Shown here: piece by piece, positions 1-60,765 of the stretch
Layout: the number at the start of each line of letters is the position of its first letter
How positions within the stretch are numbered: the stretch's first letter is position 1
DNA from: Narthecium ossifragum
Taxonomy: Eukaryota; Streptophyta; Magnoliopsida; Dioscoreales; Nartheciaceae
NCBI GenBank assembly: GCA_963920575.1
Contig: OY986969.1
Location: forward strand, 27,319,434 to 27,383,433
Direction: 5' to 3'
Length of the DNA stretch: 64,000 nucleotides
Position numbers and translations under genes: made by a program
The notes under the pieces: model-generated
Seen by the model: only the letters and a program-made list of their open reading frames with translations
Databases searched by the model: none
Told to the model about the DNA's origin: nothing

Positions 1-22
1 GCGCGCGCGAGAGAGAGACCAT
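1..22 (-). CDS. Branch 1 repeat protein, exon 1 and start of intron 1 only (gene runs off left edge)
   Basis: Only the start codon (22..20 on the minus strand) and 19 bases of intron are in the window. ATG is followed at once by GT and a CT-rich run, as in the gene at 3752-4452, whose start codon exon at 4450-4452 lies in an almost identical context. The sequence on the upstream side (23 to about 360) matches 4453 to about 4810, including the leader and a TATA-like box, so this is the first exon of a tandem duplicate whose body lies outside the window. The product is inferred from homology alone. Confidence 0.6.
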
Positions 23-59
23 CTCGTAAGGGATGCTGAGGAGATGATAGGATTCAGGA

Positions 60-130
60 GAAGAGTTTGGAGCTGTTATGCTTCACAAGAGCAGATCGCC
101 AGATCGATGAAGCTAGCTTATTTATACCGC
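60..130 (-). promoter_or_regulatory. Promoter and leader of the left-edge branch 1 gene
   Basis: On the minus strand a TATA-like box (TATAAATAA, about 118-126) is followed by a leader with the block GATCTGCTCTTGTGAAGCAT. The same TATA-plus-leader arrangement precedes the four complete branch 1 genes. Here the TATA box is degenerate and the leader has a short internal duplication (AGATCG). Confidence 0.5.
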
Positions 131-501
131 CACTTGCTAGCTGGTGAACGGCGGCAATTTGGTAATTTAACTATTGATGCATTTCTTTAATTCTTGCGTG
201 ATGACTTATTCTACTCAGAGATATTTGATGCAGGTTACTAGCTACTTGGAAAAGTTCCTATCTTTTGGAACCAAAAGGAATAGGAGTTTTCCGGTTTCTT
301 CTAAGCAGGCCGATGCTTGGACGGTTACCATTTTAGACATCATATGGATTTTTTTTTATATAGTTAATTGATGATAAAACCAAATTAGCATGACATATTA
401 ACCTATATCCCACGTATAATTTTTTTAAGACGATTAGTCCATTAATGAGGAGTTATGGTAGTTTTGATTTTATGATGGCCATATTATGCTATTATTCCAT
501 T

Positions 502-1066
502 GTGATCATGGGAGTGAATGACAATTGGGTAGAGTCGAATCTTATCCTCGAAATTATATTCTTAGGATAAGAACTATATATTCTCGATCGTCATCTCGTC
601 GGTTGAAAATATTATCACCATGAGCCAATATCAAAAATGCCCACCGGCCATTATAGCTAGGGTTGAACTCCCTTTTACATCGTCAAAAGAACACATATAT
701 GCCAATGGGTGGTCGAAATAATATACTCGCATGACAAGAAGGCTGGAATCGTATGCTCGAAATTATGTTGACATGTTCTGGTGAGAAAGATTGTGATCAT
801 GGGAGTAAATGACAATAGGATAGAGTCGAATCGTATTCTCGAAATCATAGTCTTAGGATAAGAACTATATATGCTCGATCGCCATCTCGTCGGTTGAAAA
901 TATTATCACCATGAGTCAATATATATCATAAATGCCCACCGGCCATTATAGGGTTGAACTCCTTTTTACATCGTCAAAAGAACACATATATGCCAATCAG
1001 CCAATGGGTGATCGAAATAATATACTCGCATGACAAAGAAAGCTGGAAACGTATGCTCGAAGTTAT
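502..1066. repeat. Tandem duplication, two units of about 291 bp
   Basis: The block beginning GTGATCATGGGAGT at 502 recurs at 793 with scattered substitutions and small indels. It includes the shared stretches CTCGTCGGTTGAAAATATTA and GCCCACCGGCCATTATAG. I see no gene in 370-2450; the rest is AT-rich intergenic DNA with a short CT microsatellite near 1470. Confidence 0.8.
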
Positions 1067-2460
1067 ATATTCATGATAGACTGGCGCGGCCATGATAGGG
1101 TCGAACTTGATTCCTTTACATCATAAAAAAGGGAATATATATACCACCGGCACGGGGGTACGTGGCCGATATATATGTTAAATTCCCATGCATGATAAGG
1201 CTGGAAGCCTGGAAGCATATACTTGAAACCCATTTCTATGACTGAACCAGATCGAACTATATACAGATATCATGCAGTCTGCTCTTGATAAGGTTCGTAT
1301 TCCACTGATGGGTCCAAAGCATATGTTCCCTCAGAAAATAATTAGTTATGGGAATGAATGACAGGGTTAAAAGAGAAATATGTAATCAGAGGTAGAGTCC
1401 GCTCCTTAAATTAAATGGTGCCTGCCTTGTATTACGCGGAACCTCCCGTATCATTGGTATTTGAATTTTGCTCTCTCTCTCTCTCTCTCTCTTATTTGAT
1501 TTCTTTGCAAACAAACCCATATCATTTAGTTCTTTTAAGAGATTCAATTAATCTTATTTCTTTAAACTCACTCAAGAAACAATGATCCAAATTATAATAA
1601 CCGATATCCACCAATCATGAGATCTCTTTCAAAGGAGCAAATCCATATCATGGAGCTACAAATACAGCTAAATCTCTATCAAGGGAAAAACGAGATTAAT
1701 GTTATCAATCACTGAGAATAAAATCCTCTGTATAAGACAATCTAGCCTTATTTAGTATCAATGCATAATAAGACATATTGTATAAATCTATATTTTTCTT
1801 ATCTACATGTATCATATATTTATTTAAACAATAGTAATACGTGACTTTGCTAAGGAGAAAAATTCCACGATCTCTATCTTTTTTTATTTTCTTCAAATTA
1901 CCCATGATTTGATGGTTGTGTACATTGGTCTAAAGAGAGTACTATTACAATAAGGACATTTTTGTCATTTAATTTTGATAATTATTTTAACTCACTCATG
2001 AACCAACCTCCAAATTACCCTTGAGGGATCAATTTATCCTTAATTGAACACTAATTTATTTAAAGTCAAATTGAGACTCGAGAAATAGGGCCGTTTATGT
2101 CTTTTAATATCTTTTCTAATATATATATATACTAGGTGGGACCCCTGCCACCTGACAGGGTAACCATTAGATTAATGGATGATTCGGTTATAAAAACCGA
2201 ATTTGATTAATGGATTAATATGGATATCATATAAGGTTAATGTATTAGATTAGTATACTATAACTATAGAATAGATATAATTGTATGAATTAAATCAACA
2301 TTATAAGGGGGCGATTATGTATAACCGTTTTTGCTCCTTATAAGGTTGATATGCTAAAGTTTTTTTCTTGAGTGGAAAATTAGTCTCTAAGGGGTTAATT
2401 GCAATGAAAATAAGCGAGTAGGTAAAATATAAATACCAACAAAATAGAGGTTTCTCACAT

Positions 2461-2742: not shown

Positions 2743-2744
2743 AT

Positions 2745-3750: not shown

Positions 3751-3751
3751 A

Positions 3752-4385
3752 TTAACGGCGGTACACGTTGCCATAGATGCGGCCGTTGGTATCCTTCCCA
3801 GCTTCATTCCCCGATGCCATCCGCAATCCACCTCGAGCACCGATGATTTTGTTGCTGTACACTTGCATGTTGTTCTCTCTGCCTGCCTTGTTCCCGACGG
3901 CGAGATCCACTTCGTCCTCGGCGTCCTCCACGGTGTTGCCGAAGACCCGCATGTTGTTATCGCACATGGCTTCATTCGCCGCCGCGACGCGCACTCTCCC
4001 GTTCGCGCCGCCACTACCCAAGACGTCGTTGTTGTAGATGCGCATCCGGTTGTCGCGGTAGGCAGTGTTCCCGACGCCTAAGTCGACGGGATAGTCGGCG
4101 CCAACGATCCTGTTGTTGTAAATAGCGCTGCGATTGTCACGGCCTGCGTCGTTGCGGTGGGCCAGGCGAACCCTCCCAGTTCCACCGATGACATCGTTGT
4201 CGTAGATTTCGGCGTCCGAGTGTCGGCCAGCCCTGTTGTCAGTAGCGATTTCATCTCTGACGGAGGAGTAGGGGCAGCCGGCTCCCCGGCAGGGGCGGGA
4301 GTATCGGCACCATGACTGGCACTGTAAATGTTATAGATGTATATATAATACAGTTAGCCACGCTTCAAGCTAAAAGATATATGCA

Positions 4386-4450
<65 letters not shown>

Positions 4451-4452
4451 AT
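3752..4452 (-). CDS. Branch 1 Asn/Gly-rich 28-residue repeat protein
   Basis: Two exons: the start codon alone (4452..4450) and 4321..3752, split by a 128-bp phase-0 GT-AG intron that contains a (GA)n microsatellite. The predicted protein has 190 residues. Residues 1-20 are Cys-rich (C2, C6, C12, C17), one residue shorter than in the sister genes. The rest is about six imperfect 28-residue repeats. Each repeat has one half of type hydrophobic-x-hydrophobic-x-x-N-x-V/I (for example AEIYDNDVIGG, MRVFGNTVED) and one half of type VGNxAGRDN. The protein ends in RIYGNVYRR. It has no signal peptide and no membrane segment. The splice sites were chosen because the acceptor TTACAG gives the same reading frame and start position as in the paralogues at 31135, 37354 and 60617. 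I do not recognise a described family; beta-solenoid is inferred from periodicity. Confidence 0.8.
4396..4447. repeat. (GA)n microsatellite in intron 1
   Basis: About 25 GA units; on the gene strand this is a CT run directly after the start-codon exon. Similar CT runs occur at the same place in the genes at 31135 and 37354 and at the left edge. Confidence 0.9.
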
Positions 4453-4479
4453 CTCGGGATGCTGATGAGTTGATAGGAC

Positions 4480-4540: not shown

Positions 4541-4627
4541 CATTTGCAAGTTGGTGAACGATGGCGATTTCGTAATTTAACTCTTGGTACGACTTTTTAA
4601 TTCTAGGGTGATGACTAGCTTGTACTC

Positions 4628-4628
<1 letters not shown>

Positions 4629-4702: not shown

Positions 4703-4706
<4 letters not shown>

Positions 4707-8480: not shown

Positions 8481-8482
8481 GA

Positions 8483-9663
8483 ATGGTTAGTCCTGTTAAA
8501 TATCAAAACTATGAGACTTGGGTATCTGTTCTTTTTGACTGATCACGTACTGCGTCTTTCTATATAATTCTCATCGTGATTAATAACATCAGGGTGCTCG
8601 CCAGCCAGTTGGACGCCTCAACTCCACCGGAGCAGATCACCACCTACCAGCGCTGCAGCCCAATGCCCTAGGCATCAAGTCTGAAGCTTCACCAGCCAGT
8701 GGAGCAATGGGATGGCCACCTAGAACCGCATCAAGTAGAAAGCAGGTAAAACAGCAACCTGATCTCCTGCTGCTCTTCTTCTTCTTCTTCTTGTTTTTTT
8801 CTTTTTTTTTTTACCAAGTAAGTCCGGAGGCTAGAAACAGAGCCGGATACAAGGTGGGCCAGCCGTTAAAGATGGATAGTTTTCTTTAATTAAAGATCTC
8901 ACTCTAGCAGCTGGGCCAGCCTCCTAGCTTTTCCAATATTGGTATGTACTTTCCAACCAAAGCCCCAGCCATTGCACATCCGGCAAGATCGTTCAAGATG
9001 GATGGGCTTCCTCCGGCGCCCTCCATCCCTACGCCGCCCACAGCACCAGGTCCAGAGATGGGCGGCCTAAGAGACCAACTCTATGTCGTCCCGGATGACA
9101 GCAACATGGTATACGTACCAATAAGATCAGACTTAGAGGCATACGCACATGCCGCATATGTTACCCCGATGATGATAACTTTAACAACATGCCTCGTTAT
9201 CTAAAAGTGGATCGTCGCCATGTAGGCGACTTGAGCGATAGATCCACCTGCTGCTGCTCCTGGACCTGGACAGCAGAGATGGCAACAGACCAATGCTAAC
9301 AATTACAATGATGGTTTATTCCGACAGGGGATTTTCTCCGGTGTTGCGAACTGGGTCCGCAAGGCGTTCTTCGTAGTATGGAAGCATGGTGCGGCTGATC
9401 ATCATCGAGCACCAAATGAAGGCCGTGGTGATCTTCGAGAACCCTACGTAGAACCAGGTAAAGGGCTTGGTCAAGGAGATCTATATGGAGGCCGTGGTCA
9501 TCCAGCAGGCCAATATGAAGACCGAAGTGATAGGGCCGGCAGAGGTGGTACACTCGTCTATGGTAACACCATCAGTGATCCGGCGAGAGTGAGGTTCGCA
9601 GAAGGGAATTGGGGAGGTCGGTCTACTGGTGGCCGGATCAGCGGCAACCGCGTGATACGCTAG
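8483..9663 (+). pseudogene. Branch 2 Pro-rich protein with terminal repeat unit, frameshifted
   Basis: Exons: start codon alone (8483-8485), 8593-8745, and 8911 onward; both introns are phase 0 and GT-AG. Exon 3 reads through the branch 2 box DDSNMVYVPIRSD, then shifts frame by +2 relative to the gene at 13458, near 9130-9158. That gives a stop at 9202-9204 after 149 residues. The conserved continuation (PRYLKVDRRHVGDL) is in a second frame at 9159-9230. A second shift (apparent GATA duplication near 9231) restores the first frame, which stays open to the terminal unit GTLVYGNTIS...GNRVIR and a stop at 9661-9663. Intron 2 holds a T-rich tract resembling a LINE tail. It is a pseudogene, or an allele with two compensating indels; sequencing error is a third possibility. 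Confidence 0.7.
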
Positions 9664-10179: not shown

Positions 10180-10845
10180 CTAGTCGTACTCCCGGCCTCT
10201 GCGTTTATCCTTGTTGGTCCAAGTCCAGCTCCCAATCTTGTTACCCTTCACATTGAGATGCAGGTCCTTTACGTAGATGACTTGAGGGGGCTGGCCATTG
10301 CTGCAGCCGTTGGCCGGAACGATGCGACGATCACTGGAGGATAGCCTCAGCTGACCCAGGAGCCCAGATGCGTTGATGTCAATCTCCTCTCTGTCATCTC
10401 TCCAGCTGCTGCTATATGTACTAGACTGCCTTCGACTCTCTACACTTGGAGGCCTTGTAAAGCGCTCCTGATGATGTGATGGAGGTCTTGCACTGGGCAC
10501 ATGATACGCAGCACCGGATCTTGGATACCTGTTTTGGGGCATGGGATATAATTCCTCTTCCTCCTCCTCGTCGTCGTCGTCCTCGTGGCATTCACAGTCG
10601 CAGTCGCTATGGCAGTCGGAGTCGCAATCGCAGTCGTCACTGTTCTCATCGCTCTCTTCTTCTTCGGAGACTGAAGTGCGGTCTGTGAAGTCGTCGGAGT
10701 CTGGCTGGTATGGCCGGCTCGGCCTGTATGGATTGTGAGGTTGGTAGGGTGAACGATTGCCGCGGTAAGAAGAGCTGTGACCAGGCCACACGTTCACATG
10801 TCCGCTGGCGCTAAAGTTGTAACCACATCTCTGGCTTTCTGCCAT
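10180..10845 (-). CDS. Branch 3 acidic protein with Cys/Asp cluster
   Basis: A single exon of 221 residues. I chose the ATG at 10845..10843 (MAESQRCGYN); the frame is open further upstream but has no earlier ATG. Order: Tyr/Pro/Ser-rich N-terminus (1-50); acidic stretch (50-98) containing six Cys between residues 72 and 86 alternating with Asp, Ser, His and Glu, then a run of Asp/Glu; Ser/Arg/Pro-rich linker; a short helix-like SGLLGQLRL; and a C-terminal motif VIYVKDLHLNVKGNKIGSW, then a basic tail. The C-terminal motif is shared with the genes at 47881 and 50261. The Cys/Asp block could bind metal; that is inference. No known family recognised. Confidence 0.7.
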   Translation of the reverse strand: MAESQRCGYNFSASGHVNVWPGHSSSYRGNRSPYQPHNPYRPSRPYQPDSDDFTDRTSVSEEEESDENSDDCDCDSDCHSDCDCECHEDDDDEEEEEELYPMPQNRYPRSGAAYHVPSARPPSHHQERFTRPPSVESRRQSSTYSSSWRDDREEIDINASGLLGQLRLSSSDRRIVPANGCSNGQPPQVIYVKDLHLNVKGNKIGSWTWTNKDKRRGREYD

Positions 10846-11573
10846 ATATTGCTCAAAGAAAATTTGCTTTTCCACGCTTAAAGTGGGAATATTTAGAGCC
10901 CAAGCTTCAAGCCTGAATCCTGAGTAGGTAAACCGATTGTTTGATGTTAGACTATATATATATAATATATGGAAGTGTTCATGAAAATCACCAAATAAAC
11001 CAAGATTTCAGATGAAAAAATAAAAGGTAGACAACCAAATAAATGCGTTCTATCATGAATTAGTACTATACCTGCAGCAAGCTCCCGCTATAGCAATTTT
11101 TTCGCTTAGGGGACTATATAGGACAGTGGTCGAAATCGAATATTCCGATGAAAGAGTCCAATTATTATATTCCCCATTACAAAAATTTGTGATGATGGGA
11201 ATTAGTGGACGACAGGTTCCAATTCATGTGGCGGATAAATGTATTACCATTCAAATGGTCGAAATAATACGGTCAAATTATGAGATCGAAATCATATATT
11301 CTCATGATAGGGTTCGAAATATAATCGCTAAGACAAGATTGGTATGAATATATTCCAGGATAAGGTCCGGGAGTATATGATAAGGTTGGAATCCTACTTT
11401 TGACATCATAGTTCAGACAGCAAAATCGAATGCGTTTTATGAAGTACTTGTTAGCACAGTGTTTTAGTCGTGAAGTACTTTAATCACTCAAATTAAAAGC
11501 TAAAGGTAAATTTATATTAATATATTTTAACATATTTTCATTATAATATCAAGATTCATATAATCATATTATG

Positions 11574-17694: not shown

Positions 17695-18703
17695 ACGGTC
17701 CTCTCTTTTGTCTCGGTAATCTCCCTCTCTCCCTTCCTCTCTCATCGATGGATTGATCGATTGAAGGCAAACTCTGATCACTTTTTGCTTGAAAATACTT
17801 GTTGCAGGGTCTATTCTTTTTCTCGATTAATTAAGCCCATAGGCTAAAACAGAGCAGGTACAACCGTACAAGGATAAGAAAAGACAGGGAGAAGAACAGC
17901 CGGAGAGAATACAAGAAAATAAAAACGAAATGGGGCTGTTTCCAAGCAAGCCCAAGACCGATGATGCTGCTAACTCGGCTCCGGAACGCCCTGATGATGC
18001 CGGCCAAACCGGGGGTCCGCCAGCCTCCCGAGAGGACAATCAGGTAAACCCATGTCCATATTTTGTTGTAGCGAGAACAAAGATCACATGCAAAGCTGGG
18101 AAATACCTGTTGCTCAATGGGTCCTAGAGTGGCAGTTAAAAGCTAGGAATTCTTGGTAACAAGTCCATCCATATTCTATCAGCAAGCAGCTCAGAGAGGA
18201 TTTTTTTTTATTTTTTTTTCTTTAATCTCTGATATGGGCCCTGAGATCTTTATACTGTCCAGGATATATGCTATTGATCTATCAATACTTTCTATTTCCT
18301 TCCTCTTTAAAGCTTTTTGATACTCGAGAGTACCCAATGTCAAAGTTTTGATTTGTTGTTGTATTCTACTTAGAATTTCAAAAGTCAACTTGAGTTTGAC
18401 TAAATATTCACTAAACCGCCACTGCAGCATTCATCACTGCCACCAGAGTCCGGGCAACATCCATACGTTAGTGGGCCTGGGTGGCAGGATGACGATCCTC
18501 AGCCCGGGCGTAATGGGACTGGGTGGCAGGATTACCCTGGCGACCCACGAGCATCCGGAGGTCGCGGTGGCCGCCCAACTGATGGCACCCTTGTCTATGA
18601 TAACGTCGTCACTGGAGATCCATCAAAGGTTGTTATAGGACACGGAAATCGTGGAGGGGGAAGCACCGGTGGCCGAGTCTCCGGGAACCGTGTCAGCCGA
18701 TAG
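17695..18703 (+). CDS. Branch 2 protein, short form with replaced start
   Basis: Likely translated part: 17930-18043 and 18428-18703, phase-0 intron, 129 residues, starting MGLFPSKPK. The second exon has a GWQDD/GWQDY-containing Gly/Pro-rich linker and ends in GTLVYDNVVTGDPSKV and GNRVSR. Compared with the gene at 41973, the original exon 1 (17695-17715, seven codons) begins ACG instead of ATG and is followed by a GT donor. The original exon 2 acceptor (TTGTTGCAG before GGTCTATTC at 17809) is followed by a retroposon tail. The ATG at 17930 lies exactly where the ATG-GLF junction would be in spliced mRNA. The intron 18044-18427 is homologous to 42207-42638. Transcription and start choice need RNA evidence. 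Confidence 0.6.
17816..17926 (-). mobile_element. LINE-type 3' tail fragment in exon 2 of branch 2 gene
   Basis: It begins on the plus strand with TTTTTCTCGATTAATTAAGC, the reverse complement of the tail shared by the LINE fragments here, and runs about 110 bp up to the ATG at 17930. A possible diverged target duplication is GGGTCTATTC against GGGGCTGTTT (three differences in ten). Confidence 0.5.
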
Positions 18704-25586: not shown

Positions 25587-26955
25587 CTAACGTACCACAA
25601 TGTTGCCACTGACCCGGCCCCCTGTCTTTCGTCCGCCACGGTTCCCTTCTCCAATCCTCACTCTTGTTGGATCACCGATGATAACGTTATCATAGACAAG
25701 AGTTCCGGGTTCTTGACGGCCTTCGTTTGGTCCAGCTGGGTGCTCAGCACCGCCTTCATTTGGTCCACCAGCTGGGTGCTCAGCACCGCCTTCATTTGGT
25801 CCACCAGCTGGGTGATCATCACGGCGGCCTTCATTTGGTTCCGGGTGATCACGACGGCGACGTTCATTTGGTCCACCAGCTGGGTGATCATCACGGCGGC
25901 GTTCGATTGGTCCACCTGGGTGATCACGACGGCGACGTTCATTTGGTTCTGGATGATCATCATGGCGGCGTTCATTTGGTATTGGATGGTCATCACGGCG
26001 CCAGAATCCTGCCCGCGCCCTCGACGGTAAGCTGTGCCATCTCGTGAAGGGGCCCAAGCGGGAGTTGAAACGGTCACTGTCGGTGTCACAGCGTCGCACT
26101 CTCCGGCGCCCCGGAGGAGGAGGAGGGGCTGGATCGTTGAAGTCGCCCACATAGCGACGATTTACTCGTAGGTGAGTAGGGGAATTGTTCAAGTAATCAT
26201 CATCAGGATAACACTCGCGGCTTGCTTTTATGCCCATCTCTGATCTTATGGGTATATAGATCATGTTAGAGTCAAGTGGGTCGCAATAGCGTCCGTCCCC
26301 TAGATCTTCTCCAGCGTATGGGCGGTGGCCTGGAGGAGGGTAGTCTTCGACATGCGGCGCTCGGCCTGATCCTTGCTGCGGGCCTTGTGGTGGAGGAGGG
26401 CCTGAGCCTGTTTCCACTACCTGTGGATATGGTGGTGGTGGTGGTGGTGGTGGTGGCACATCCATCTGGGACGACGATGGTGTTATCTCCGGTGCCTGAG
26501 CGAACTGCGGCACTGTGGGTTGGACAAACACCGGAGAGCTTTGTAGTTGGCCCATCTGCTTGAGAGAGATCTTTAATATAGAAAACCACACACAATAGGA
26601 AGTGAAGTTGATCAAAAGAGAACAGAGAAGCATGCATGAGAGGTTGCACGTCACCTGTTCGTCAATTGGTGCAGTGGGTGCAGTGGGTGCAGTGGGGGGC
26701 TGCTCCCTTCCTGATGCTCCGATGGCTGGCGTAGTTTCAGACAGGACGGCAAGTCCACTGGGCGGCGGCAGTTCTGATGGGAATGTTGACTGTTGATCTG
26801 TGGAGGCAGAGTTGGGGCATCCAAGCGTCCCGCACGGGAAGTGCTCACAGCACGGTAGCTGGCAACCACCCTGGATGGACACGATCGAGAATCAGAGAGA
26901 TATAGAGAGGGATCGGTTATAAAATAGCTGCTAGCTAATTGAGGAGACTGACCAT
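25587..26955 (-). CDS. Branch 2 protein with Cys motif, His/Pro repeats and terminal unit
   Basis: Exons: start codon alone (26955..26953), 26870..26655 and 26555..25587; phase-0 introns; 395 residues. Residues 2-20 carry C-x3-C-x4-P-C-x3-G-C-P, the N-terminal motif of branch 1. Exon 3 has a poly-Pro run, the box DSNMIYIPIRSEMGI, a CYPDDD segment, and a region of about eight units of type DDHPxPNERR/AEHPAGGPNEGG. It ends in GTLVYDNVIIGDPT and GNIVVR. Intron 2 (26654..26556, 99 nt) has no stop and is in frame, so a retained-intron form of 428 residues is possible. The start codon follows CAGCTCATCA, as in the genes at 8483 and 13458. It links the two branches and is probably intact. Function unknown. 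Confidence 0.8.
25770..26030 (-). repeat. Coding tandem repeats of His-Pro-Asn-Glu type
   Basis: About eight imperfect units of 30-39 bases encoding DDHPEPNERR-like and AEHPAGGPNEGG-like decapeptides to dodecapeptides inside the branch 2 gene. The two 36-base units near 25735-25806 are almost identical, so the array is still evolving by unequal exchange or slippage. Confidence 0.8.
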
Positions 26956-31134: not shown

Positions 31135-31204
31135 ATGGTACCCTCTCACCCTCCCTGCCTCCCTCCCTCAGTCCCTCCCTGCCTCCCTCCCTCCCTCCCT
31201 CCCT

Positions 31205-31272
<68 letters not shown>

Positions 31273-31893
31273 CGAGCGCACAAAATGGCTAACCGTGTTC
31301 TGATTGTCTAACTTTTGCAGAATTGCCTACCAACATGCCGGCCCGCCCGCCCCTGCTGCGTCCGTGGCTGCCCCTACTACGGTGAAGTCCAAATCGGAAG
31401 CGGCGGCTATGCCGGGCAAGACATGAACGATCTAACCTATAACAACGGCGTCTACGGTGGGGCTGGGAGGACACGCGTCGCCGTCGACGGCTATGCCGGC
31501 CGTGATAGCAATAACATTGTCCGTAACAACCGCATCGCAGACGCCTACGGGGACGTCGACGTAGCCGCCAGGAACTATGCCGGCAACGACAGCAACATGG
31601 ATGTCTATGGCATCAACGTGAGAGGCACCGCTCGCGGTACTCGCGTGCGCGTTGCGGCGGACAACGGTGCGACCTATGGCAACAACAACATGAGGGTGGC
31701 ATGCAACGATATCGACGATGCCTACGGCGACGTGGATATGGCCGTTGGAAACTGGGCAGGTAGAAACAACAACATGGACATGGTGAACAATCGTGTGAGA
31801 GGTGCTCGTGGCGGAGTTGGGATGGGAGTTGGGAACAGGGCTGGGAGGGACAACAACGCTGGCTTGTACAACAACGAGGTTTACCGTAACTAA
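31135..31893 (+). CDS. Branch 1 Asn/Gly-rich 28-residue repeat protein
   Basis: Two exons: start codon alone (31135-31137) and 31321-31893; 191 residues. Intron 1 (31138-31320) is phase 0, GT-AG, and holds (CCCT)n and (CT)n microsatellites. The N-terminus MNCLPTCRPARPCC continues to GCPYYG and matches C-x3-C-x4-P-C-x3-G-C-x-Y. Then come about six 28-residue repeats with NNxVxG and VGNxAGRxxN halves, ending LYNNEVYRN instead of the basic end of its sisters. An open frame extends a few codons into the acceptor side but has no ATG, and the exon 1 solution reproduces the paralogues. No signal peptide or membrane segment. Not a family I recognise; solenoid fold is inferred. Confidence 0.85.
31141..31270. 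repeat. (CCCT)n and (CT)n microsatellites in intron 1
   Basis: About 70 bp of CCCT-like units followed by about 58 bp of pure CT, immediately after the start-codon exon. Confidence 0.9.
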
Positions 31894-37353: not shown

Positions 37354-37357
37354 ATGG

Positions 37358-37389
<32 letters not shown>

Positions 37390-38039
37390 GTACTTGCATA
37401 AAAATAATAGTGGCTAACTGTCTTCTCTCTAATTCTCTCTAATTTGTGCAGAGGTGCCAACCAACATGCCGACCCAATCGCCCCTGCTGCATCCCGGGCT
37501 GCCGCTATAATTATGATGATGATCTTCCTGCAGGTGAAGTCCAAGTCGGCAATGACAACTACGCTGCGCGAGACTCTGATGATTTAATATGTGGCAACGA
37601 GGTCACCGGGGGTGTTGGGAGGGCACGCGTCGCTGTCGGCGGCCAAGCCGGCCGTGACTCCTCCAATTACTTCCGAAACAACCGCATCAGAGATGCCAAT
37701 GCGGACGTCGACGTAGGCGTCGGGAACACTGCCGGTCGGGATGCCAATATGGATATCTCCAACAACAACGTGCGGGGCGGCGTACGCGGTGCTCGCGTGC
37801 GCGTTGGGGCAGCGAACGATGCTTGTTTCGATAACAATATGCGGGTCTCGCGCAACAGCGTGGTGGGTGCCAGTGACGATGTCGACATCGCCACTGGTAA
37901 CAAGGCAGGCAGGAACAACAACATGGATGTGTCCGACAACTGCGTCGAAGGTGGTCGAGGAGGAGTGCGGATGGGAGCCAGGAATGCTGCTGGAAGGGAC
38001 AACAATGCTCGTGTCCGCGGCAACGTGGTCCACCGTTGA
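37354..38039 (+). CDS. Branch 1 Asn/Gly-rich 28-residue repeat protein
   Basis: Two exons: start codon alone (37354-37356) and 37452-38039; 196 residues. The 95-bp phase-0 intron starts GTCTCTCTCT and contains CT and CA runs. The N-terminus MRCQPTCRPNRPCC with GC after three more residues fits C-x3-C-x4-P-C-x3-G-C. A six-residue Asp-rich insertion (YDDDLP) follows, then about six repeats of the 28-residue unit. Examples are MDISNNNVRGG, MRVSRNSVVGA and VGNTAGRDAN. It ends VRGNVVHR. High third-position GC. It is intact, with no signal peptide or membrane segment. Its neighbour in the same orientation is the paralogue at 31135. Function unknown. Confidence 0.85.
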
Positions 38040-42041: not shown

Positions 42042-43916
42042 CATCTCTGCGACTCTTTACTGAATTGCAAATGCTTATTATTGCAGAGTCTATTCACGAC
42101 GAAGCACGATGCTGCTGCCAATTCCGCTCAGGATGAAGTTCCTCATGATGGCGGTGGCGGCGGCCAATCCGTGGGTCCGCCCGCAGCCTCCCAGGAGAGC
42201 AATCAGGTAAACCTTCCGCCATGACGTCATGTGTTGTAGTGAGAACATAGACCCAAAGCTGGGGAATTCTTATTGCTTTAAGATGTGCCTAACTAGAGTA
42301 GCAGTGAGGAAAAACCTGGGAATTCTTGGTAACAGGTCCATCTTTTTTATTGTTAGCAAGCAGCTCAAGGAGGACCTTTCTCTTATTAATTACTTCTTTT
42401 TTCGTTTTAAATCGTCGATATGGGCCCCTGAGATTTTTGTACTGTAAACAATATATGCTATTGATCTGTGCCAAAACCGAGTTTTCTCTATTGTTAGTCA
42501 TTACCTTATATTTCCTTTGTTTTTTTCCAAGCTTGTTAATCGTTTCAACTTGTCCAAAACCGAGTTTTCTCTATTGTTGGATTTAAGAGTTAGAAGTCGC
42601 CTTGAGTTCCACTAACGTTCACTGAATTGCCACTGCAGCATTCAGCACCGCCACCAGAGAAGTCATCCTGCGATAACGTCACTGAAGATCCATCAAAGGT
42701 GGTTATAGGAGAAGGAAATTATGAAGGTAAGAGTACTGATCGCCATGTTATTGGCAACTATGTAAGCATATTTCCATCACTTCAGTCTCAGCCCCAGCCT
42801 CAATTCCAAACTCAGCTACAGCCTCAGGCCCAATCTCAACCCCATCCTCAAGTCCAACCTCAACCCGAGGCTCAGGCCCAATCTCAAATCCAACCTCAAC
42901 CCCAGCCTCGACAACAATCTCAGCCTCAGTCTCAATCCCAAACTCACCCTCAGCCTCAACATAGGGAAGATCTATATGTTAATGGGGATGAGAGGCAAGA
43001 ATACCATGGCAATTGCGACTCACATCTACAGGAGACGTTGATAGGTGAATATGGAGGCGAGGGTAGTCACCCAACTGAATCCAACATCCTTGTCTACGAT
43101 AACATCGTCATTGGAGATCCATCAAAGGTGGTTATAGGACAAGGGAATCATGGTGGTAGGAGCACCGGTGGTCGAGTCACAGGCAATCGTGTAAGCAGAT
43201 ATCCATCATCTCAGCCTCAGTCCCAGTCTCAGCCCGAGCCCCAGCTTCAACCTCAATCTCAGCCTCAACCTAAACCTCAGTTTCGGTATCAGCTGCTTGA
43301 ACCTCATCTTCAGTCTCAGCCTTCACCTCAGCTCCAGCCACACCCTCAGTCTCAGCCTCAACCCCAGTCACCGATAAGGGGATACGAATGTGAGGGTGGT
43401 CACCCAACTGAATGCGGAACCCTCGTCTACGATAACATCGTCACTGGAGATCCATCAAAGGTGGTTATAGGACAAGAGAATCGTGGAGGTAGGACCACCG
43501 GTGGTCGAGTCACTGGCAATTGTGTAAGCAGGTATCGATCACCTCTGCCTGAACCACAGTCTCAAACCCAGCCCCAGACTCAGTCTCAGATTCAGCCTCA
43601 GCCTCAGCCCCAGCTCCAGCCTCACCCTCAGCCTCAGCCTCAGCCTCAGCCTCAGCCTCAGTCTCAACCCCAATCTAGACAAGATACATACGTTAATGGG
43701 GCTGGGTGGCGGGGCTATTATGGCAATTGCAATCCATATCAACAACAAATGCCGATAAGTGGATTCAAAAGTGAGAGCGGTCACCCAACTGAACACGAGA
43801 CCCTTGTCTACGATAACATCGTCACTGGAGATCCCTCAAAGATAGTTATAGGACAAGGGAACCGTGGAGGTAGGAGCACCGGTGGTCAGGTCAGTGGGAA
43901 CCGTGTAAGCAGATGA
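41973..43916 (+). CDS. Branch 2 protein with four repeat units and Pro-Gln linkers
   Basis: Proposed exons: 41973-41993 (MIHSFLT), 42087-42206 and 42639-43916, all phase 0; 472 residues. Exon 2 is Gly/Ala-rich. Exon 3 begins HSAPPPEKSS and contains four repeat units. The first is degenerate (CDNVTEDPSKVVIGEGN). The others start LVYDNIVIGDPSK or LVYDNIVTGDPSK and end GNRVSR or GNCVSR. They are joined by Gln/Pro/Ser linkers of about 50-90 residues, with YVNG- and YYGNC-containing stretches. The donor ACA-GTACTC is weak, but it lines up with TCG-GTAATC in the paralogue at 17695. Without it, the frame is open from the ATG across a TA microsatellite. The terminal unit matches branch 1 repeats. Intact; function unknown; likely an extended chain with folded beads. 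Confidence 0.75.
42009..42040. repeat. (TA)n microsatellite in intron 1
   Basis: About 16 TA units between exon 1 and the acceptor TTATTGCAG at 42086. It is in frame and encodes alternating Ile-Tyr if not spliced. Confidence 0.85.
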
Positions 43917-46813: not shown

Positions 46814-47260
46814 CTAGCGCATAACACGGTTGCCACTGACACGGCCTCCAGTCTTTCGACCACCACGGTTCCCCTCTCCGATCCTCACTCTTGTTTGATC
46901 ACCCACGACAACGTTATCGTGAACCAGAGTTTCGGATTCGTCATGGGCCTTCATTAGTTCATTTGGTTCGCCACGGCCTTCGTTTGGTCCCCGTGAATGA
47001 TCACCACGGCGCCTAAATGCTGATTCCAGCGCCCTCGATGCATTAATCATGCTAGAATCATGCGGATCGCAATAGCGTTTGTTCCTGAGGTCGCCTTTCC
47101 GCTTCGGCTTTCGCTTTCGCTTTGGCCGCCCCAGATCTACTCCACCGCATGGGCGGTAGCCTGGAGGAGGGTAGTCCTCGACAAGTGGTGGCAGAGGAGG
47201 GCCTGAGCCTGTTTCCACTACCTGCATTGTACCATGTGGGGATGATGTTATATACGGCAT
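46814..47260 (-). CDS. Branch 2 protein, 5'-truncated copy
   Basis: A single open frame of 148 residues from the ATG at 47260. It is homologous to exon 3 of the gene at 25587: VVETGSGP, VEDYPPPGYRP, a Lys/Arg-rich insertion (residues about 45-60), CDPHDSSM, a shortened linker, and the terminal unit VHDNVVVGDQTRVRIGEGN with end GNRVMR. Upstream bases (47261-47310) still match the start of exon 3, but in another frame and with a stop. Exons 1 and 2 are not found, and a T-run plus LINE tail (47348-47400) interrupts the region where they should be. Either a pseudogene or a shortened gene starting at the internal ATG. Confidence 0.55.
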   Translation of the reverse strand: MPYITSSPHGTMQVVETGSGPPLPPLVEDYPPPGYRPCGGVDLGRPKRKRKPKRKGDLRNKRYCDPHDSSMINASRALESAFRRRGDHSRGPNEGRGEPNELMKAHDESETLVHDNVVVGDQTRVRIGEGNRGGRKTGGRVSGNRVMR

Positions 47261-47347
47261 TGGACAAACAACGGAGAGTCTTGTGTCTGTGCTATCTATT
47301 TAGAAGAGAGGTCTTTAATTGATAAAGAGAACAACATAACATCTTGT

Positions 47348-47880: not shown

Positions 47881-48276
47881 TTATTTCCCAGTAACTTTCT
47901 TTTGTTTATTCACGGCCAAGTTCTCGATCTTGTTGTCTTCGACGATGATGCACAATTCCTCGATGACCACCTTCCCCCCATTTCCATGGATTGGGCCCTT
48001 GTCACCTTGATTAGCTTTACCAAGAAGTCCATTTACCTGCTTCAGGATATTCATATCTTCGCTGCCGCCACTGCCAGCGCCTCCTCCCCTCCGTTGCTCC
48101 ACAGCTCGCGCCCTGCTGCGATCATGGTTGTAAACTAGAGGGATGGGACGTCGATTAGGCCGTCTTGGCGGTGGAGCTCCGTCATCCTCATCGCTGTCAT
48201 CGCCTCCCGTCCACGGCACCACCGGTGGCGGCTTTCGTACATAATCTTCTTCATCGTCATAGCCGTTCCGTGCCAT
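47881..48276 (-). CDS. Branch 3 acidic small protein
   Basis: A single exon of 131 residues; ATG at 48276. The N-terminus is acidic and Pro-rich (DDEEDYV, GGDDSDEDDGAPPP), then Arg-rich, then a helix-like stretch NILKQVNGLLGKANQG, then the branch 3 motif KVVIEELCIIVEDNKIENL and a basic tail ending VTGK. The same order (acidic disordered part, short amphipathic helix, strand motif with N/G-K-I) is seen at 10180 and 50261. No signal peptide or membrane segment. Unknown family. Confidence 0.7.
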   Translation of the reverse strand: MARNGYDDEEDYVRKPPPVVPWTGGDDSDEDDGAPPPRRPNRRPIPLVYNHDRSRARAVEQRRGGGAGSGGSEDMNILKQVNGLLGKANQGDKGPIHGNGGKVVIEELCIIVEDNKIENLAVNKQKKVTGK

Positions 48277-50260: not shown

Positions 50261-51058
50261 TTAGTTTGCAGATGGAGCAGCTGACGGATGCTTGGAATTT
50301 TTCCCTCTCCTTCCCTGCATCCTGCCTAAATTCTCAATCTTGCCGCCTAGCACATTAACATGCAGGTTTATATTGTAAGGAGTATGGTCATCACTGCTAG
50401 TTCCTGCACCACCTGCACCTGCACCGCGGGGAGGTAATTTCAATTCTTTTATGACATTGCGGCAGAGTTGATCTAAGCCATCTTCATCATCATCATCATC
50501 ATTATCATCATCCTTTTGCCACCTGCGAGGGTTTTCCGTTGGTTTGGGCTTCACCAGATAATCGGCGTCCTCCTCATCCTTCCCAGCGGCAGCATTTTTG
50601 TACTTTGGTGCAGGAGAATAACGACCAAACTGCATCGGCGGGTTCCTCCAGTCGTCATGTTTCTCGTCTTTCTCCTTTGAATCATCATCATAGGTATTTC
50701 TAGATTGATAGTTGTTACCCTGCCATTGTGGACGTGCTGCTGCTGATGGCTTGGAATTAGAATAGCCATGCCGAGCTGCTGAAGCGGCCGGAGCCGGTGG
50801 ATCAGACGAAGGCTTAGGCTCTAACTTCGGTTTCCCTGCAGGCTGCTCCTGTGGAGCTCGAGATGGTGCAGCTTGAGCGGATGAACCCTTTGGCATGCCA
50901 TACGGCACATCCTCATCATCCCTTGCCGCAGTGTCTTGCTGCCGTCGTCCATTGGATGGCCAGCCGTTGTTCCTTGCCGCCGGTCGTCTGAATCCATACT
51001 GATCATCATTGTCGCTGCCGTAGTTGCGTCCACCTCGGCGGTTCCAGCGGTCCGACAT
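50261..51058 (-). CDS. Branch 3 acidic protein with Arg/Gly/Asn N-terminus
   Basis: A single exon of 265 residues; ATG at 51058. The N-terminus is Arg/Gly/Asn-rich (MSDRWNRRGGRNYG), then a long Ala/Pro/Ser/Lys disordered region, an acidic run (DDDNDDDDDEDG), a helix-like DQLCRNVIKELKLPP, a Gly/Ala hinge and the branch 3 motif YNINLHVNVLGGKIENL, then a basic Ser/Ala tail. A TATA-like stretch (TATATATATTATAGCC on the minus strand, about 51180-51195) lies upstream. Unknown function. RGG-like and acidic composition would allow nucleic-acid or cation binding, but that is inference. Confidence 0.7.
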   Translation of the reverse strand: MSDRWNRRGGRNYGSDNDDQYGFRRPAARNNGWPSNGRRQQDTAARDDEDVPYGMPKGSSAQAAPSRAPQEQPAGKPKLEPKPSSDPPAPAASAARHGYSNSKPSAAARPQWQGNNYQSRNTYDDDSKEKDEKHDDWRNPPMQFGRYSPAPKYKNAAAGKDEEDADYLVKPKPTENPRRWQKDDDNDDDDDEDGLDQLCRNVIKELKLPPRGAGAGGAGTSSDDHTPYNINLHVNVLGGKIENLGRMQGRRGKNSKHPSAAPSAN

Positions 51059-51589
51059 GATTGGATCGATGAACGAGTTGATGAGAATTAAGCTAGGTAC
51101 GTAGCTTAATTAGCTTTCGGGGGCCAGGAGTGCTAGCTTAGCTTAGCTTCTTGTGTTGTTCCCGACTCTTGCAACCTGGCTATAATATATATATAAAAGA
51201 AGGGCCAAAGACTTTGAAGGATATGAAGGAAGGTGCCGGAGGAGGGTAAGAATTAAGTAGGAACATGGTGATGCTTCAATTGGTATCAATTGGATTTAAA
51301 CAAAGACCATCTTTTGAATCAGTGTTTTATTTTTTTCCCCCTTTAATTTTAAGACTTTGCTTTGGGTATACTTCTATCTAGGGATAAAATTGTAATTTCA
51401 GGCGACCCCTTCTCCTTCTGAATAGTGAATAGTTCAATTTTAATTTACTAAGAATTAATTGAAGCATAGATGATTGAAGGGGCCATGATGTGCTGCAGGG
51501 GAAAGTCTTGTATTATTGGGAGCTACAGTATGAAGAAAAATAAGATATATACAACATTGACTTGCATATGAAAAGACCTGGATTAATTA

Positions 51590-52901: not shown

Positions 52902-53288
52902 TGATAGGCAGCCACGACCAGTTCGGTCGCGCAAGCCTAATCCACGCTATCTTTAGCTTGTTGTTAAGAGTCCTAGTTGATCATTAATGCTAGTAGTAAG
53001 AAAAGGGCTGGATTAGTATGTGGTAGTTATCTTGATTGGGTAAGGCCTATGCTGCTTGTAGCGTACGGCTTAGGAGTGATCAGCCGGACTAGTGGACGGT
53101 TGTGATTTAGGAGGTCATGGAGTCATTAGGGTTTGGGTATTTAAGAGTTGAAGTCCTGTAATTCATTATCTTCTTCATAATAGAAAAGACAGGGGTTTCC
53201 AGCCATTAATTGGATCAGGGGTGTGCCTCCACCATTAAGAGAGGCCGATCTTGTGCTGCAGACGTCTGCTGCGGCCTCGATCTTATCA
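52902..53288 (+). repeat. Left LTR
   Basis: 387 bp, TG...CA ends. Differs from the right LTR at three positions that I compared by eye, about 0.8 percent. Confidence 0.95.
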
Positions 53289-53290
53289 AG

Positions 53291-53302
53291 TGGTATCAGA
53301 GC
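53291..53302 (+). promoter_or_regulatory. Primer binding site, initiator tRNA-Met
   Basis: TGGTATCAGAGC, two bases after the left LTR, is the standard complement of the initiator methionine tRNA 3' end in plant LTR elements. Confidence 0.9.
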
Positions 53303-53319
53303 AGTTCGTTCCTGTAGCT

Positions 53320-54519: not shown

Positions 54520-54546
54520 TCTTGGGGAACAGAGGAGGAAGGGCCG

Positions 54547-56667: not shown

Positions 56668-58051
56668 GGGAGAGTGGTGGTGCCGCCGAGATCTGAGATT
56701 TGCCGTCAATTATTAGTGGAATACCACGATTTCACTATTGGGGGACACTCCGGGGTATTGAGAACCTACAGGAGGATCGCGCAGCAGTTTTTCTGGGAAC
56801 AAAATGCGCCGGGATGTCAAGGAGTATGTATCTACTTGTGAGGTGTGCCAGAGGAACAAACATGACACCAGGAGTCCCGCAGGGATGCTGCAACCCTTGC
56901 CGGTGCCAGCTCAAGTTTGGGAAGAAATTTCGATGGATTTCATTGAGGGATTGCCAAGGGCGGCAGGGGTGGACGTAGTGATGGTGGTAGTTGACAGACT
57001 AACCAAGTATGCTCACTTCATTCCCATGAGCCATCCATATACGGCAAACAAGGTGGCGACGGCATTCATACAGAATGTTGTCAAGTTACATGGCGTCCCT
57101 AGAAGCATTGTTAGTGATCGAGATAAGGTGTTTCTGAGCCATTTTTGGAAAGAATTCTTCAAGCAACAAGGAACCAGCCTGAAGATGAGTACAGCGTATC
57201 ACCCCCAGACGGATGGCCAGACAGAGGTTACTAACATGTCTCTTGAACGGTACCTCCGATGTTTCGCAAGCCAACAACCGAGGCGATGGATAGAATTTTT
57301 ACCATGGGCGGAATATTGGTATAACACCACATGCCATAGCTCGACTGGTATGACACCTTTTGAAGCAGTTTACGGCCGACCACCACCGGGAATTCCTCAT
57401 TACTTGGCTGGCGTGTCTCCGGTCGCGGAAGTGGATCGGGCTTTGGGTGAGCGGGATGAGGTGATCCGGCTTCTTAAAGATAACCTTCATAAATCAATCA
57501 ACCGTACCAAGCAACGAGCTGATGAGCACAGGCGGGAGGAAGTATTTGAAGCAGGCGACTGGGTGTACTTACGGCTTCAACCATATCGTCAAAGTACGGT
57601 TTTTCGCAGAGCACACCAAAAGTTGGCCAGCAGATTCTTCGGGCCGTACCAGATTGTTGCTCGACTCGGTGCAGTGGCGAACCGTTTGGCCATGCCTGAA
57701 ACAGCAAAAATTCACCCGGTGTTCCATGTTTCGCTGTTGAGGCGTCGATTGGGACGGGATGCACCAATAACTGTTGAAGCTCCACCGTGTACTGAGGATG
57801 GCGTTCCGGTCCTAGCTCCAGAGTTCATTCAAGACTATAGATGGGTGAAGCAAGGACGGCACTATATCACAGAAGCTCTCGTCAAATGGTCAAGCCTGGG
57901 ATCAGAAGACGCTACTTGGGAGGATGTGGAGGTCCTCCGACGCCAATTTCCTTCTTTAGTCCTTGAGGACAAGGACATTCTTCCAGGGGGGGTGAATGAT
58001 AGGCAGCCACGACCAGTTCGGTCGCGCAAGCCTAATCCACGCTATCTTTAG
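56668..58051 (+). CDS. pol: Retrotransposon integrase and chromodomain part, out of frame
   Basis: After the stop the frame continues through GGHSGVLRTYRRIAQQFFWE (zinc-finger part of integrase), then shifts by +1 near 56795-56803; the open part with ATG is 56804-58051. It contains CEVCQRNK, the core with MDFIEGLP and SDRDKVF and TDGQTE, a GPY/F module (RFFGPYQIV) and a chromodomain-like end (ALVKWSSLGSEDATWEDVE). The last 18 codons and the stop lie inside the right LTR. Confidence 0.85.
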
Positions 58052-58383
58052 CTTGTTGTTAAGAGTCCTAGTTGATCATTAATGCTAGTAGTAAGAAAAG
58101 GGCTGGATTAGTATGTGGTAGTTATCTTGATTGGGTAAGGCCTATGCTGCTTGTAGCGTACGGCTTAGGAGTGATCAGTCGGACTAGTGGACGGTTGTGA
58201 TTTAGGAGGTCATGGAGTCATTAGGGTTTGGGTATTTAAGAGTTGAAGTCCTGTAATTCATTATCTTCTTTATAATAGAAAAGACAGGGGTTTCCAGCCA
58301 TTAATTGGATCAGGGGTGTGCCTCCACCATTAAGAGAGGGCGATCTTGTGCTGCAGACGTCTGCTGCGGCCTCGATCTTATCA
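57997..58383 (+). repeat. Right LTR
   Basis: 387 bp, same ends as the left LTR. Its first 55 bases also encode the end of the pol frame. Confidence 0.95.
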
Positions 58384-59960
58384 ATCTTCTACTTCTTCTT
58401 CTCTTTTACACTAAATTTGATTTCATCACAAAGGTGATCTGTATAAACACTAGCTGTCAACGACTTCTTGGTATACTTTGTTTCTGGCCATTTTCTGATG
58501 GATGGCTACTTAATAATAACAGTATTGCAACAGTGGATGAAAGTGACGAAGTGCTTGTCTATGAATGTGGCTTCGAACTTTCCTAATTTTATATGTGGTT
58601 CTAGAGTTCCACAATTAAATATGGTAGTTGCGGAATTCTCGAGCGCACGTATTGGCCACCATACCAGATACATGTCGACTCATTGATCCAAAAGTAAACA
58701 TGTATACTCTATTTCTACTTTACGCATGTTAAGTAATCAATCGTTGGTGGCACTGCAACAGCGCTTTGTATACTGTAAGCAAATTAGAACCAAAAGGCCA
58801 AAGAAGAACTATGAACGCTGCACACAAGTGCCTGTCTAGGTACTTATATAGAATCGCTCTTTCGTTACCAGCCTAATTAAGCTAGGATGTATACAGCAGC
58901 CCTTGAGTATCTCAATGATTAACTGGTACCATGTGGTGGTGATGTGTGTTGGGCTTGGGGTCTAATCCCCAAGCCTCCAAATTTGTTGGAGATGCAGGGC
59001 ATTTGCCCCCTTAAGCCTGGATAAAACGTTTGATTAACTAATAAAACATCTAATTAAACTTCGATTAAAGACTCAATTATTTAAAAAGAAACATTCGAAA
59101 GAAGCATGAATGCTAGGTTGCATGTTTGTGTCAAGCACAATTGGCAGGGCTGGTACCATTATGTTTTATCTCTTTCTTCATTCTTGGAAAATGAGGTTGG
59201 GACTTGAGAGGAGTTCAAATCTCTGAACCTTGGAGGTTATCTTTGCACCATAGGGTATAGATTGATCGAGAATATCAGGTATGTACAGCAACAGAAACAA
59301 GTCATCAAGCAGTGAACTTCTCTCCTAGTGACAATCCACTAGCGCTGTAATATCCGCCAATAAATGAAATGAAAGGACAAACCAAGAAATACCTAAACTA
59401 AAATAAACTTTAATTTGCTAGCTAGATATCGGCTTTAGTAGAATGCTGCTGTAGACGGAGACTCATGTTAATTAATCAATTCTCTTCTGAATTAGTTAAA
59501 TATCATTTGACATTCCTTATGTAGCTTGTTACCACTTATTAATTAGCAAGTTCTTCAGATCTCACACTATGACTTTATTTATATGCTAGAAGTCAGGAAG
59601 CAATATATATGTGATCCGCATAGAGTGCCAATTCCAAACACAAGTTACACAATTATGTGTGTATATCTTTGGACCACACATTCTTCACTAAACGTTGAAG
59701 ACAAATTTTTTTACGCGTAGAAACCCATATAAATTAGCTGAAAGGAATTACAAGGAAAGCCAAGCAATGCAGACACAACAAACGTTACAAACCACATATA
59801 TATGCTCCTCTTCTTATGCCTAAACCCCATCACAAACATGACAGACGGCGGCGGCAATAAGATCGGACATACTTATTGAATTGAAAGCAAGCAAGCATGC
59901 ACACGTACGTAAATAAAGATCGATACACCTGCAGCAACTTTAGCCATAGTAGTACGTATA
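58384..59960. other. Intergenic region; SINE-like repeat at 58910-59050
   Basis: No gene. 58910-59050 has GGGGTCTAATCCCCAAGC and CCTCCAAATTTGTTGGAG and ends in GATTAACTAATAAAACA, similar to 12430-12560. Confidence 0.4.
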
Positions 59961-59963
59961 TAA

Positions 59964-60617
59964 TTAACGGCGAACCACGTTGCCGTAGATGCGGGCATTG
60001 TTATCCCTTCCAGCCTGATTTCCGGCTCCCATCCGGACACCGCCCCGACCACCACTGACATCGTTGTCGAAAACCTCCATGTTGTTGTTTCTGCCTGCCT
60101 TGTTACCAGTGGCAATGTCCACATCGTCACAGGCACCCACCACACGGTTGCGATAAACCGCCATATTGTTATCGTTGCAGGCATCATTCTCCGCACCAAT
60201 CCGCACGCGAGAACTGCCCGCGCCGCCCACCACGTCGTTGCAGAATACATCCATATTGCTGTCACGGCCGGCACTATTCCCGACGCCTATGTCGACGTTC
60301 CCGTTGGCATCTCTGATGCGATTGTTATAGATATTGTTCTGCGAATTACGGCCGGCACGCCCGCCGACGCCGATGCGTGCCCTCCCACGGCCCCCGATAA
60401 CGTCGTTGTCGTAGATTTCATCTCTAGAGTCTTGCCCGGCGTAGTTGTCGTTGCCAATTTGGACATCAGCATATGGGCAGCCCTCGCAGCAGCAGGGGCG
60501 GGCGCGTCGGCATGTTGGTAGGCAATCCTGCAAAACATATATACGGAATCTGCTTAGCCGGCCACCATTTTGTCAAACAAACTAGAGATTTGATCAGAGG
60601 AAAGGAGATTATACCAT
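59964..60617 (-). CDS. Branch 1 Asn/Gly-rich 28-residue repeat protein
   Basis: Two exons: start codon alone (60617..60615) and 60527..59964; 188 residues. The 87-bp phase-0 intron starts GTATAATCTC and ends GTTTTGCAG; unlike in the sisters it has no long CT run. The N-terminus MDCLPTCRRARPCCCEGC fits C-x3-C-x4-P-C-x3-G-C. The six 28-residue repeats are the clearest in the window: halves such as NNIYNNRIRDA, MDVFCNDVVGG, MAVYRNRVVGA and MEVFDNDVSGG alternate with VGNSAGRDSN and TGNKAGRNNN. It ends RIYGNVVRR. Intact, no signal peptide or membrane segment. Used here as the reference for the repeat. Function unknown; beta-solenoid inferred. Confidence 0.85.
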
Positions 60618-60714
60618 TTCGTACGTCAAACAAACAAGAGATGTGATCAGAGGAAATTAAGGAGATTATAGCTAGGTGATCAGTAACAAATTTAGCAGAA
60701 GGAGATAGATCGAA

Positions 60715-60765
60715 GGTTATTCGAATTGGGATGCTTCAGAAGAGCAGATGGATAATGCTTATATA
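60715..60765 (-). promoter_or_regulatory. TATA box and conserved leader of branch 1 gene 59964-60617
   Basis: On the minus strand TATATAA (60765..60759) is followed by GCATTATCCATCTGCTCTTC and TGAAGCATCCCAATTCGAAT, nearly identical to 31027-31077 although the genes are 29 kb apart and in opposite orientation. Confidence 0.8.

What the first reader, a model, noticed from the sequence alone, without database searches (positions are those of the whole stretch)
1..60765. A 60-kb cluster of one undescribed repeat-protein superfamily in three branches
About 14 genes or relics in the window encode proteins I cannot match to a described family. Branch 1 is made of 28-residue Asn/Gly/Arg/Val repeats. 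Branch 2 has disordered Pro/Gln-rich arms plus one to four units of the same repeat. Branch 3 has acidic arms plus one strand-like motif. Co-location, shared gene structure and shared leaders suggest that the products act together, perhaps as a solenoid or fibre core with capped, disordered arms and acidic partners. The assembly model is inference.
Basis: partly seen in the sequence, partly recalled or inferred. Interest (0 to 1): 0.88.

Follow-up and report, generated by a model that had tools for sequence, protein, structure and literature searches.

The report
Plant gene cluster of stacked-coil proteins
A gene cluster from a plant whose nearest named protein matches are yams encodes a protein family with no accepted match in the family libraries searched; its members share one 28-residue repeat unit, present six times in some and one to four times in others, that is predicted to fold as a stacked spiral and would likely let the proteins assemble on one another.

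Summary
The core observation is real. Four intact genes (branch 1) and six genes or relics (branch 2) form one family. They share the C-terminal unit (profile E 2.5e-7). All four branch 1 genes and one branch 2 gene also share a cysteine signature absent from the window's other translations. Seven of nine loci looked at fit a first exon holding only the start codon.

Branch 3 is not supported as a member. One of its genes shares upstream DNA with a branch 1 gene.

No Pfam or NCBIfam match reached its curated cut-off, and no PDB sequence matched. Branch 2 has relatives in two named yams; branch 1 has none that the searches reached.

AlphaFold2 predicts branch 1 as a six-coil beta-solenoid (pLDDT 77, pTM 0.74). 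In 22 coils in clean register, eight positions read as inward carry no charge, and asparagine fills two of them in 18 and 21 coils; this argues against a known AlphaFold2 artefact. The four-unit branch 2 protein is not predicted to fold (pLDDT 43.5).

Best reading: a single-coil ancestor was amplified to six coils, and branch 2 likely docks by stacking. That function is inferred. A weak RHIM-like resemblance is not established.

The parts
3755..4452 (-). Branch 1 gene a: ATG-only exon at 4452-4450, 128-nt intron, exon 2 4321-3755; cysteine signature plus six coils
31135..31890 (+). Branch 1 gene b: ATG-only exon 31135-31137, 183-nt intron, exon 2 31321-31890
37354..38036 (+). Branch 1 gene c: ATG-only exon 37354-37356, 95-nt intron, exon 2 37452-38036
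59967..60617 (-). Branch 1 gene d: ATG-only exon 60617-60615 (one of three candidates), 87-nt intron, exon 2 60527-59967; modelled by AlphaFold2 as a six-coil beta-solenoid
9..206 (-). Promoter and ATG (22-20) of a further branch 1 gene, body outside the window; 77% over 198 alignment columns to the same part of gene a
25590..26955 (-). Branch 2 gene: ATG 26955-26953, 82-nt intron, exon 2 26870-26655 (cysteine signature), 99-nt intron, exon 3 26555-25590 with one terminal coil unit; 395 aa
13458..14454 (+). Branch 2 gene: ATG 13458-13460, exon 2 13609-13728, exon 3 from about 13816 to 14454; one terminal coil unit; no cysteine signature
8483..9660 (+). Branch 2 relic or broken gene: ATG 8483, exon 2 8593-8745; the conserved middle part is split between frames; terminal unit 9547-9660
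18404..18700 (+). Branch 2 last exon with one terminal unit (18584-18700); start-codon exon not identified
42639..43913 (+). Branch 2 last exon with Pro/Gln-rich arms and four units (the first degenerate; the others 43080-43199, 43413-43532, 43797-43913); start-codon exon not identified; no AlphaFold2 fold
46817..47299 (-). Branch 2 copy, seemingly truncated, with terminal unit 46817-46933
10183..10857 (-). So-called branch 3 gene (acidic, Cys/Asp-rich); homology to branches 1 and 2 not supported
47884..48276 (-). So-called branch 3 gene; homology not supported
50264..51058 (-). So-called branch 3 gene; homology not supported, but its upstream DNA (within 51551-52549) matches that of branch 1 gene d

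Best explanation
Branches 1 and 2 are one plant protein family sharing a C-terminal 28-residue unit; branch 1 carries six such units, predicted to stack into a beta-helix, and branch 2 carries one to four on Pro-rich arms predicted to be disordered, and the two would likely dock by coil-on-coil stacking. Shown: the shared unit; the cysteine signature C-x3-C-x4-P-C-x3-G-C in four branch 1 genes, one branch 2 gene, a D. alata protein and two unnamed proteins; splice-site sequence that fits a lone-ATG first exon in seven loci; relatives of branch 2 in Dioscorea. Predicted: the branch 1 fold, with strands at coil positions of about 1-9, 12-18 and 21-23. Inferred: right-handedness (from structural neighbours); branch 2 is the older form and branch 1 arose by amplifying the terminal coil; branch 1 acts as the ordered core; a single branch 2 coil, disordered alone, orders on the open end of that core or on other branch 2 coils; the cysteine start binds metal or is lipid-anchored.
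Confidence: 0.4

Rival explanations
1. Branch 1 is a stand-alone soluble beta-helix whose Arg/Asp/Asn-rich outer face binds a ligand (a polysaccharide, mineral or ice surface), and branch 2 works separately; the shared unit is only common descent.
For: Charged positions 2, 11, 12, 16 and 21 (13-18 of 22 coils each); the structural neighbours include carbohydrate-active beta-helices.
Against: Read by eye, the proteins start with the cysteine motif and show no hydrophobic secretion signal (no predictor was run), so an apoplastic role is unlikely; no sequence match to any solved structure. Clustering with branch 2 is left unexplained.
Confidence: 0.25
2. A plant amyloid-signalling system: the units work like RHIM or HET-s-related motifs, branch 1 as a multi-copy template and branch 2 as single-copy partners converted by templating.
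For: A (I,V)Q(I,V)G core, which PMC7885112 gives as the heart of RHIM (passages), opens the first coil in 3 of 4 branch 1 proteins; the looser [IV]Q[IVL]G pattern occurs 6 times in 78,500 window-translated residues, 3 of them these. Pfam RHIM is the only family reported for any of 10 short queries (12.5 bits, cut-off 20, E 0.11). Six of 9 window branch 2 units satisfy most of the HET-s-related positional rule of PMC4518210 (passages). A review asks whether amyloid signalling extends to plants (PMC7889193, passages).
Against: The RHIM score is below the cut-off, and the full-length proteins gave no RHIM hit at E <= 1. I left position 3 (N, Q or H) out of the HET-s-type rule, and the branch 2 unit does not meet it; the rest of the rule fails in both Dioscorea-type units tested, in 46817 and in 9235, and has four other hits in the window. 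The branch 2 profile finds no PDB chain at E <= 10. No receptor or cell-death domain was seen in the proteins scanned; the whole window was not scanned. The resemblance was noticed after the fact, and such strands are generic in beta-arches.
Confidence: 0.08
3. The repeats are low-complexity, disordered orphan proteins, and the AlphaFold2 solenoid is an artefact.
For: The documented AlphaFold2 bias towards solenoids on perfect repeats; no significant Foldseek match; moderate pLDDT; branch 2 arms and units unfolded.
Against: The repeats are imperfect (lag-28 self-identity 0.28-0.30), eight positions carry no charge in 22 coils, and NG86 dN/dS is below 1 in six of six pairs.
Confidence: 0.2

Closest known systems
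Dioscorea hypothetical proteins J5N97_012240 (D. zingiberensis) and IHE45_05G003300 (D. alata)
   Same: Same layout as branch 2: Pro-rich middle with YPPPGHRPFGGEDL and the terminal unit; E 8.8e-16 and 1.6e-8 to 13762. The D. alata protein also has the cysteine signature
   Different: One unit only; the D. zingiberensis protein has a degenerate cysteine start; no six-coil member found
Right-handed parallel beta-helix proteins (SufBCD-complex chains, family 3 pectate lyase, tailspikes; handedness recalled)
FapC and curli CsgA functional amyloids
   Same: Repeat solenoids; ranks 1 and 3 in Foldseek
RHIM and HET-s-related amyloid motifs
   Same: (I,V)Q(I,V)G core in the first coil of three branch 1 proteins; part of a positional rule met by 6 of 9 window branch 2 units
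   Different: Below the Pfam cut-off; rule not kept in the Dioscorea-type units; no receptor or effector partner seen
Grass ice recrystallisation inhibition proteins
   Same: Asn/Val/Gly-rich short repeats that form a beta-roll (recalled)
   Different: No PDB chain matched branch 1 at E <= 10; no secretion signal seen by eye in branch 1
Dirigent-like proteins (PF03018)
   Same: Weak Pfam hit to branch 1 gene a alone: 16.9 bits, E 0.0053
   Different: Cut-off is 29.1; no stretch passes on its own; not seen for the other three branch 1 proteins

Membership tests
Parallel beta-helix fold | Predicted coils with stacked strands | tested here: met
   AlphaFold2 model; fold neighbours, (prediction only; handedness not seen)
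Parallel beta-helix fold | Uncharged inward positions and an asparagine ladder | tested here: met
   22 of 24 coils in clean register; inward positions read from alternation; position 15 charged in 3 of 22
Pectate-lyase and related Pfam families | Profile match above the curated cut-off | tested here: not met
   none above cut-off
Dirigent (PF03018) | Profile match above the curated cut-off | tested here: not met
   16.9 bits against 29.1, gene a only
RHIM (PF12721) | Profile match above the curated cut-off | tested here: not met
   12.5 bits against 20
RHIM (PF12721) | G-(I,V)-Q-(I,V)-G core | tested here: inconclusive
   (I,V)Q(I,V)G in 3 of 4 branch 1 proteins, preceded by E, E and D instead of G
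RHIM (PF12721) | Forms hetero-amyloid fibres | not testable with these tools
   needs an experiment
HET-s-related amyloid motif (HRAM) | Positional rule: N/Q/H 3; hydrophobic 5, 8, 10 (or T), 16, 18; R/K 15; G19 | tested here: inconclusive
   Without position 3, 6 of 9 window units pass; 46817, 9235 and both Dioscorea-type units fail
HET-s-related amyloid motif (HRAM) | Adjacent receptor and HeLo-type effector | not tested
   no such domain in the proteins given to Pfam; the whole window was not scanned
Curli / Fap amyloid | Significant structural match | tested here: inconclusive
Grass ice-binding (IRI) proteins | Secreted, with N-terminal signal | tested here: not met
   cysteine-rich starts read by eye; no predictor run
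Grass ice-binding (IRI) proteins | Sequence match to a solved member | tested here: inconclusive
   no PDB chain at E <= 10; presence of the Lolium entry in the file is recalled, not checked
Branch 1 + branch 2 family | Shared terminal unit | tested here: met
Branch 1 + branch 2 family | Cysteine signature C-x3-C-x4-P-C-x3-G-C | tested here: met
   5 of 1573 stop-to-stop pieces of 25 aa or more, being all 4 of branch 1 and 1 of 6 branch 2 loci; 3 of 4 proteins
Branch 1 + branch 2 family | Detectable homology of branch 3 | tested here: not met
   hhalign probability about 0.2%, (three short rows, low power)

The most novel reading that the evidence does not exclude
The first amyloid-type signalling or scaffolding system in plants: one-coil proteins with disordered arms and a six-coil template sibling, encoded in one cluster, polymerise by homotypic beta-coil stacking, as RHIM and HET-s motifs do in animals and fungi.
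Probability: 0.07. Interest if true: 0.92.

Novelty: new variant of a known kind. Interest (0 to 1): 0.55.

Why it matters
The cluster shows what looks like a beta-solenoid in the making: a single coil at the end of disordered proteins, present in yams, and a sibling in which the coil was multiplied to six. That would give a natural test of how repeat folds arise. The family has no accepted match in the libraries searched, and its one-coil/six-coil pairing makes a direct, cheap test of homotypic stacking in a plant possible. A 2021 review asks whether amyloid signalling extends to plants (PMC7889193, passages).

Tried and rejected
Branch 3 as a family member: rejected on profile comparison. 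Pfam PARP and NCBIfam TonB/ClfB-type hits to 42606: Pro/Gln low complexity, below cut-off. Weak sub-cut-off Pfam hits to single branch 1 proteins: Dirigent to gene a (E 0.0053), FeThRed_A to gene b (E 0.071). A first branch 1/branch 2 profile comparison held one branch 1 row on the branch 2 side and was circular, so it was redone without it. BLASTP of the proteins to window exons was run without low-complexity or composition correction and is not relied on. Bacterial and viral relatives of branch 1: 81 and 44 pattern matches, none confirmed. PDB by sequence: none for branch 1 or the branch 2 unit at E <= 10, none for 25590 exon 3 at E <= 1. In one search the grass ice-binding proteins were not among the 50 rows listed, which excludes nothing. 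Papers: '28-residue repeat + plant + monocot' gave 0 papers, 'Dioscorea + amyloid + solenoid' 0. Searches on plant + functional amyloid + curli (8 of 14 listed), on RHIM/amyloid signalling/NLR (10 of 306 listed) and on plants with RHIM (5 of 5 listed) showed no such plant system in the titles and abstract starts listed. The ice-binding idea was followed by a listing only (10 of 14).
Full report
What is there. Six-frame searches of the window with one branch 1 protein find three further intact members, all at E below 1e-56. The four genes lie at 3755-4324 (-), 31318-31890 (+), 37449-38036 (+) and 59967-60530 (-). A unit typical of branch 2 is found in six loci, one of which (42606-43913) carries four copies. 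The same searches link the two branches in both directions (best E 1e-6 and 4e-7 among the window's 1573 pieces). A profile of ten branch 2 units, with no branch 1 row in it, aligns to the last coil of branch 1 at E 2.5e-7. Ungapped scores put the branch 2 unit best on the last coil in 4 of 4 branch 1 proteins.

Gene structure. Nine loci were looked at. In the seven run (four branch 1, branch 2 25590, 13762 and 9235) the sequence fits a first exon that contains only ATG, followed at once by a GT...AG intron of 82-183 bases; acceptor sites were chosen by eye, and for gene d three ATG|GT candidates exist, of which the 87-base intron was preferred by position. For 18404 and 42606 no such exon was identified. 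The four branch 1 genes share a TATATAAG box and a leader stretch. A further promoter and ATG of this type sits at the window's left edge, so the array continues outside. Branch 1 and branch 2 25590 share a cysteine signature with exact spacing, C-x3-C-x4-P-C-x3-G-C, near the start. Among 1573 stop-to-stop pieces of 25 residues or more it occurs in these five ORFs alone. It is in 3 of the 4 proteins found outside (D. alata and the two unnamed ones), not in that of D. zingiberensis, and not in window loci 13762 and 9235.

Relatives. Two searches with branch 1 found nothing (626 candidates at E <= 0.01; the 7991 candidates sharing most words at E <= 10); both see only proteins of similar length. 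A search with branch 2 13762 found four proteins among 1983 candidates: hypothetical proteins of D. zingiberensis and D. alata and two without a name. The unnamed P0002 reads from M straight into the cysteine motif on a 1291-base contig, while P0001 carries extra residues just before it; the simplest reading is spliced against unspliced sequence, but this is inference. The window is therefore probably from Dioscoreales or near; the species was not identified. dN/dS over six branch 1 pairs is 0.40-0.60 by NG86, and 0.41-0.82 by YN00 in five pairs with one failing.

Family libraries. No Pfam match reached its cut-off for the four branch 1 proteins or the branch 2 loci. The strongest below it were Pro/Gln-driven PARP on 42606 (44.7 bits of 100) and Dirigent on gene a (16.9 of 29.1). 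NCBIfam gave nothing for the four branch 1 proteins and only sub-cut-off, Pro/Gln-driven hits for 42606. PDB chains gave nothing by sequence.

Branch 3. Profiles of its motif do not align to branch 1 or branch 2, and its members barely find each other. Only 50264 shares anything: pieces of 25-76 bases at 74-88% identity between its upstream DNA and that of branch 1 gene d, not seen elsewhere in the window. This may be a shared regulatory piece or a local duplication.

How it may work. The parts common to both branches are the terminal coil and, in several members, the cysteine start, with a variable middle (Pro/Gln-rich arms or extra coils); these are probably the functional parts. Branch 2 is found in yams and branch 1 was not, so the likely order is one coil first, then amplification to six. 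A helix with an open end and free partners that carry that very coil would likely assemble by stacking. Whether this builds a scaffold, a signalling nucleus or neither is not shown.

Amyloid signalling. The (I,V)Q(I,V)G core, the weak Pfam RHIM hit and the HET-s-type rule were noticed after the fact. The rule was applied without its position 3, which the units do not meet, and it fails in the Dioscorea-type units. I keep this as the boldest reading that is not excluded, at 7%.

Noticed in passing
52902-58384 (+): A Ty3-type LTR retroelement with chromodomain; 388-base ends 99.2% identical, so recently inserted; pol lies in two separate ORFs, the integrase part apart from the reverse transcriptase and RNase H part.
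   Followed up: partly
15435-16079 (-): A divergent actin piece (Pfam Actin E 3e-57) with an unusual C-terminal end, possibly a retrocopy or pseudogene.
   Followed up: partly
35482-36045 (-): A DUF4283 fragment, probably of a LINE-type element (the LINE link is recalled).
   Followed up: no
19862-21416 and 61517-62361: Two copies of a repeat element, 82-94% identical piece by piece, the first partly tandem.
   Followed up: no
51551-52549 and 60820-61050: Upstream DNA shared by branch 3 gene 50264 (more than one copy) and branch 1 gene d, found nowhere else in the window.
   Followed up: partly
28573-28883 and 63281-63583: Inverted copies of a sequence at 82% identity.
   Followed up: no
3755-4324 (-): Branch 1 gene a alone gives a weak, sub-cut-off Pfam Dirigent hit (E 0.0053, residues 93-132), not seen in its paralogues.
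   Followed up: no
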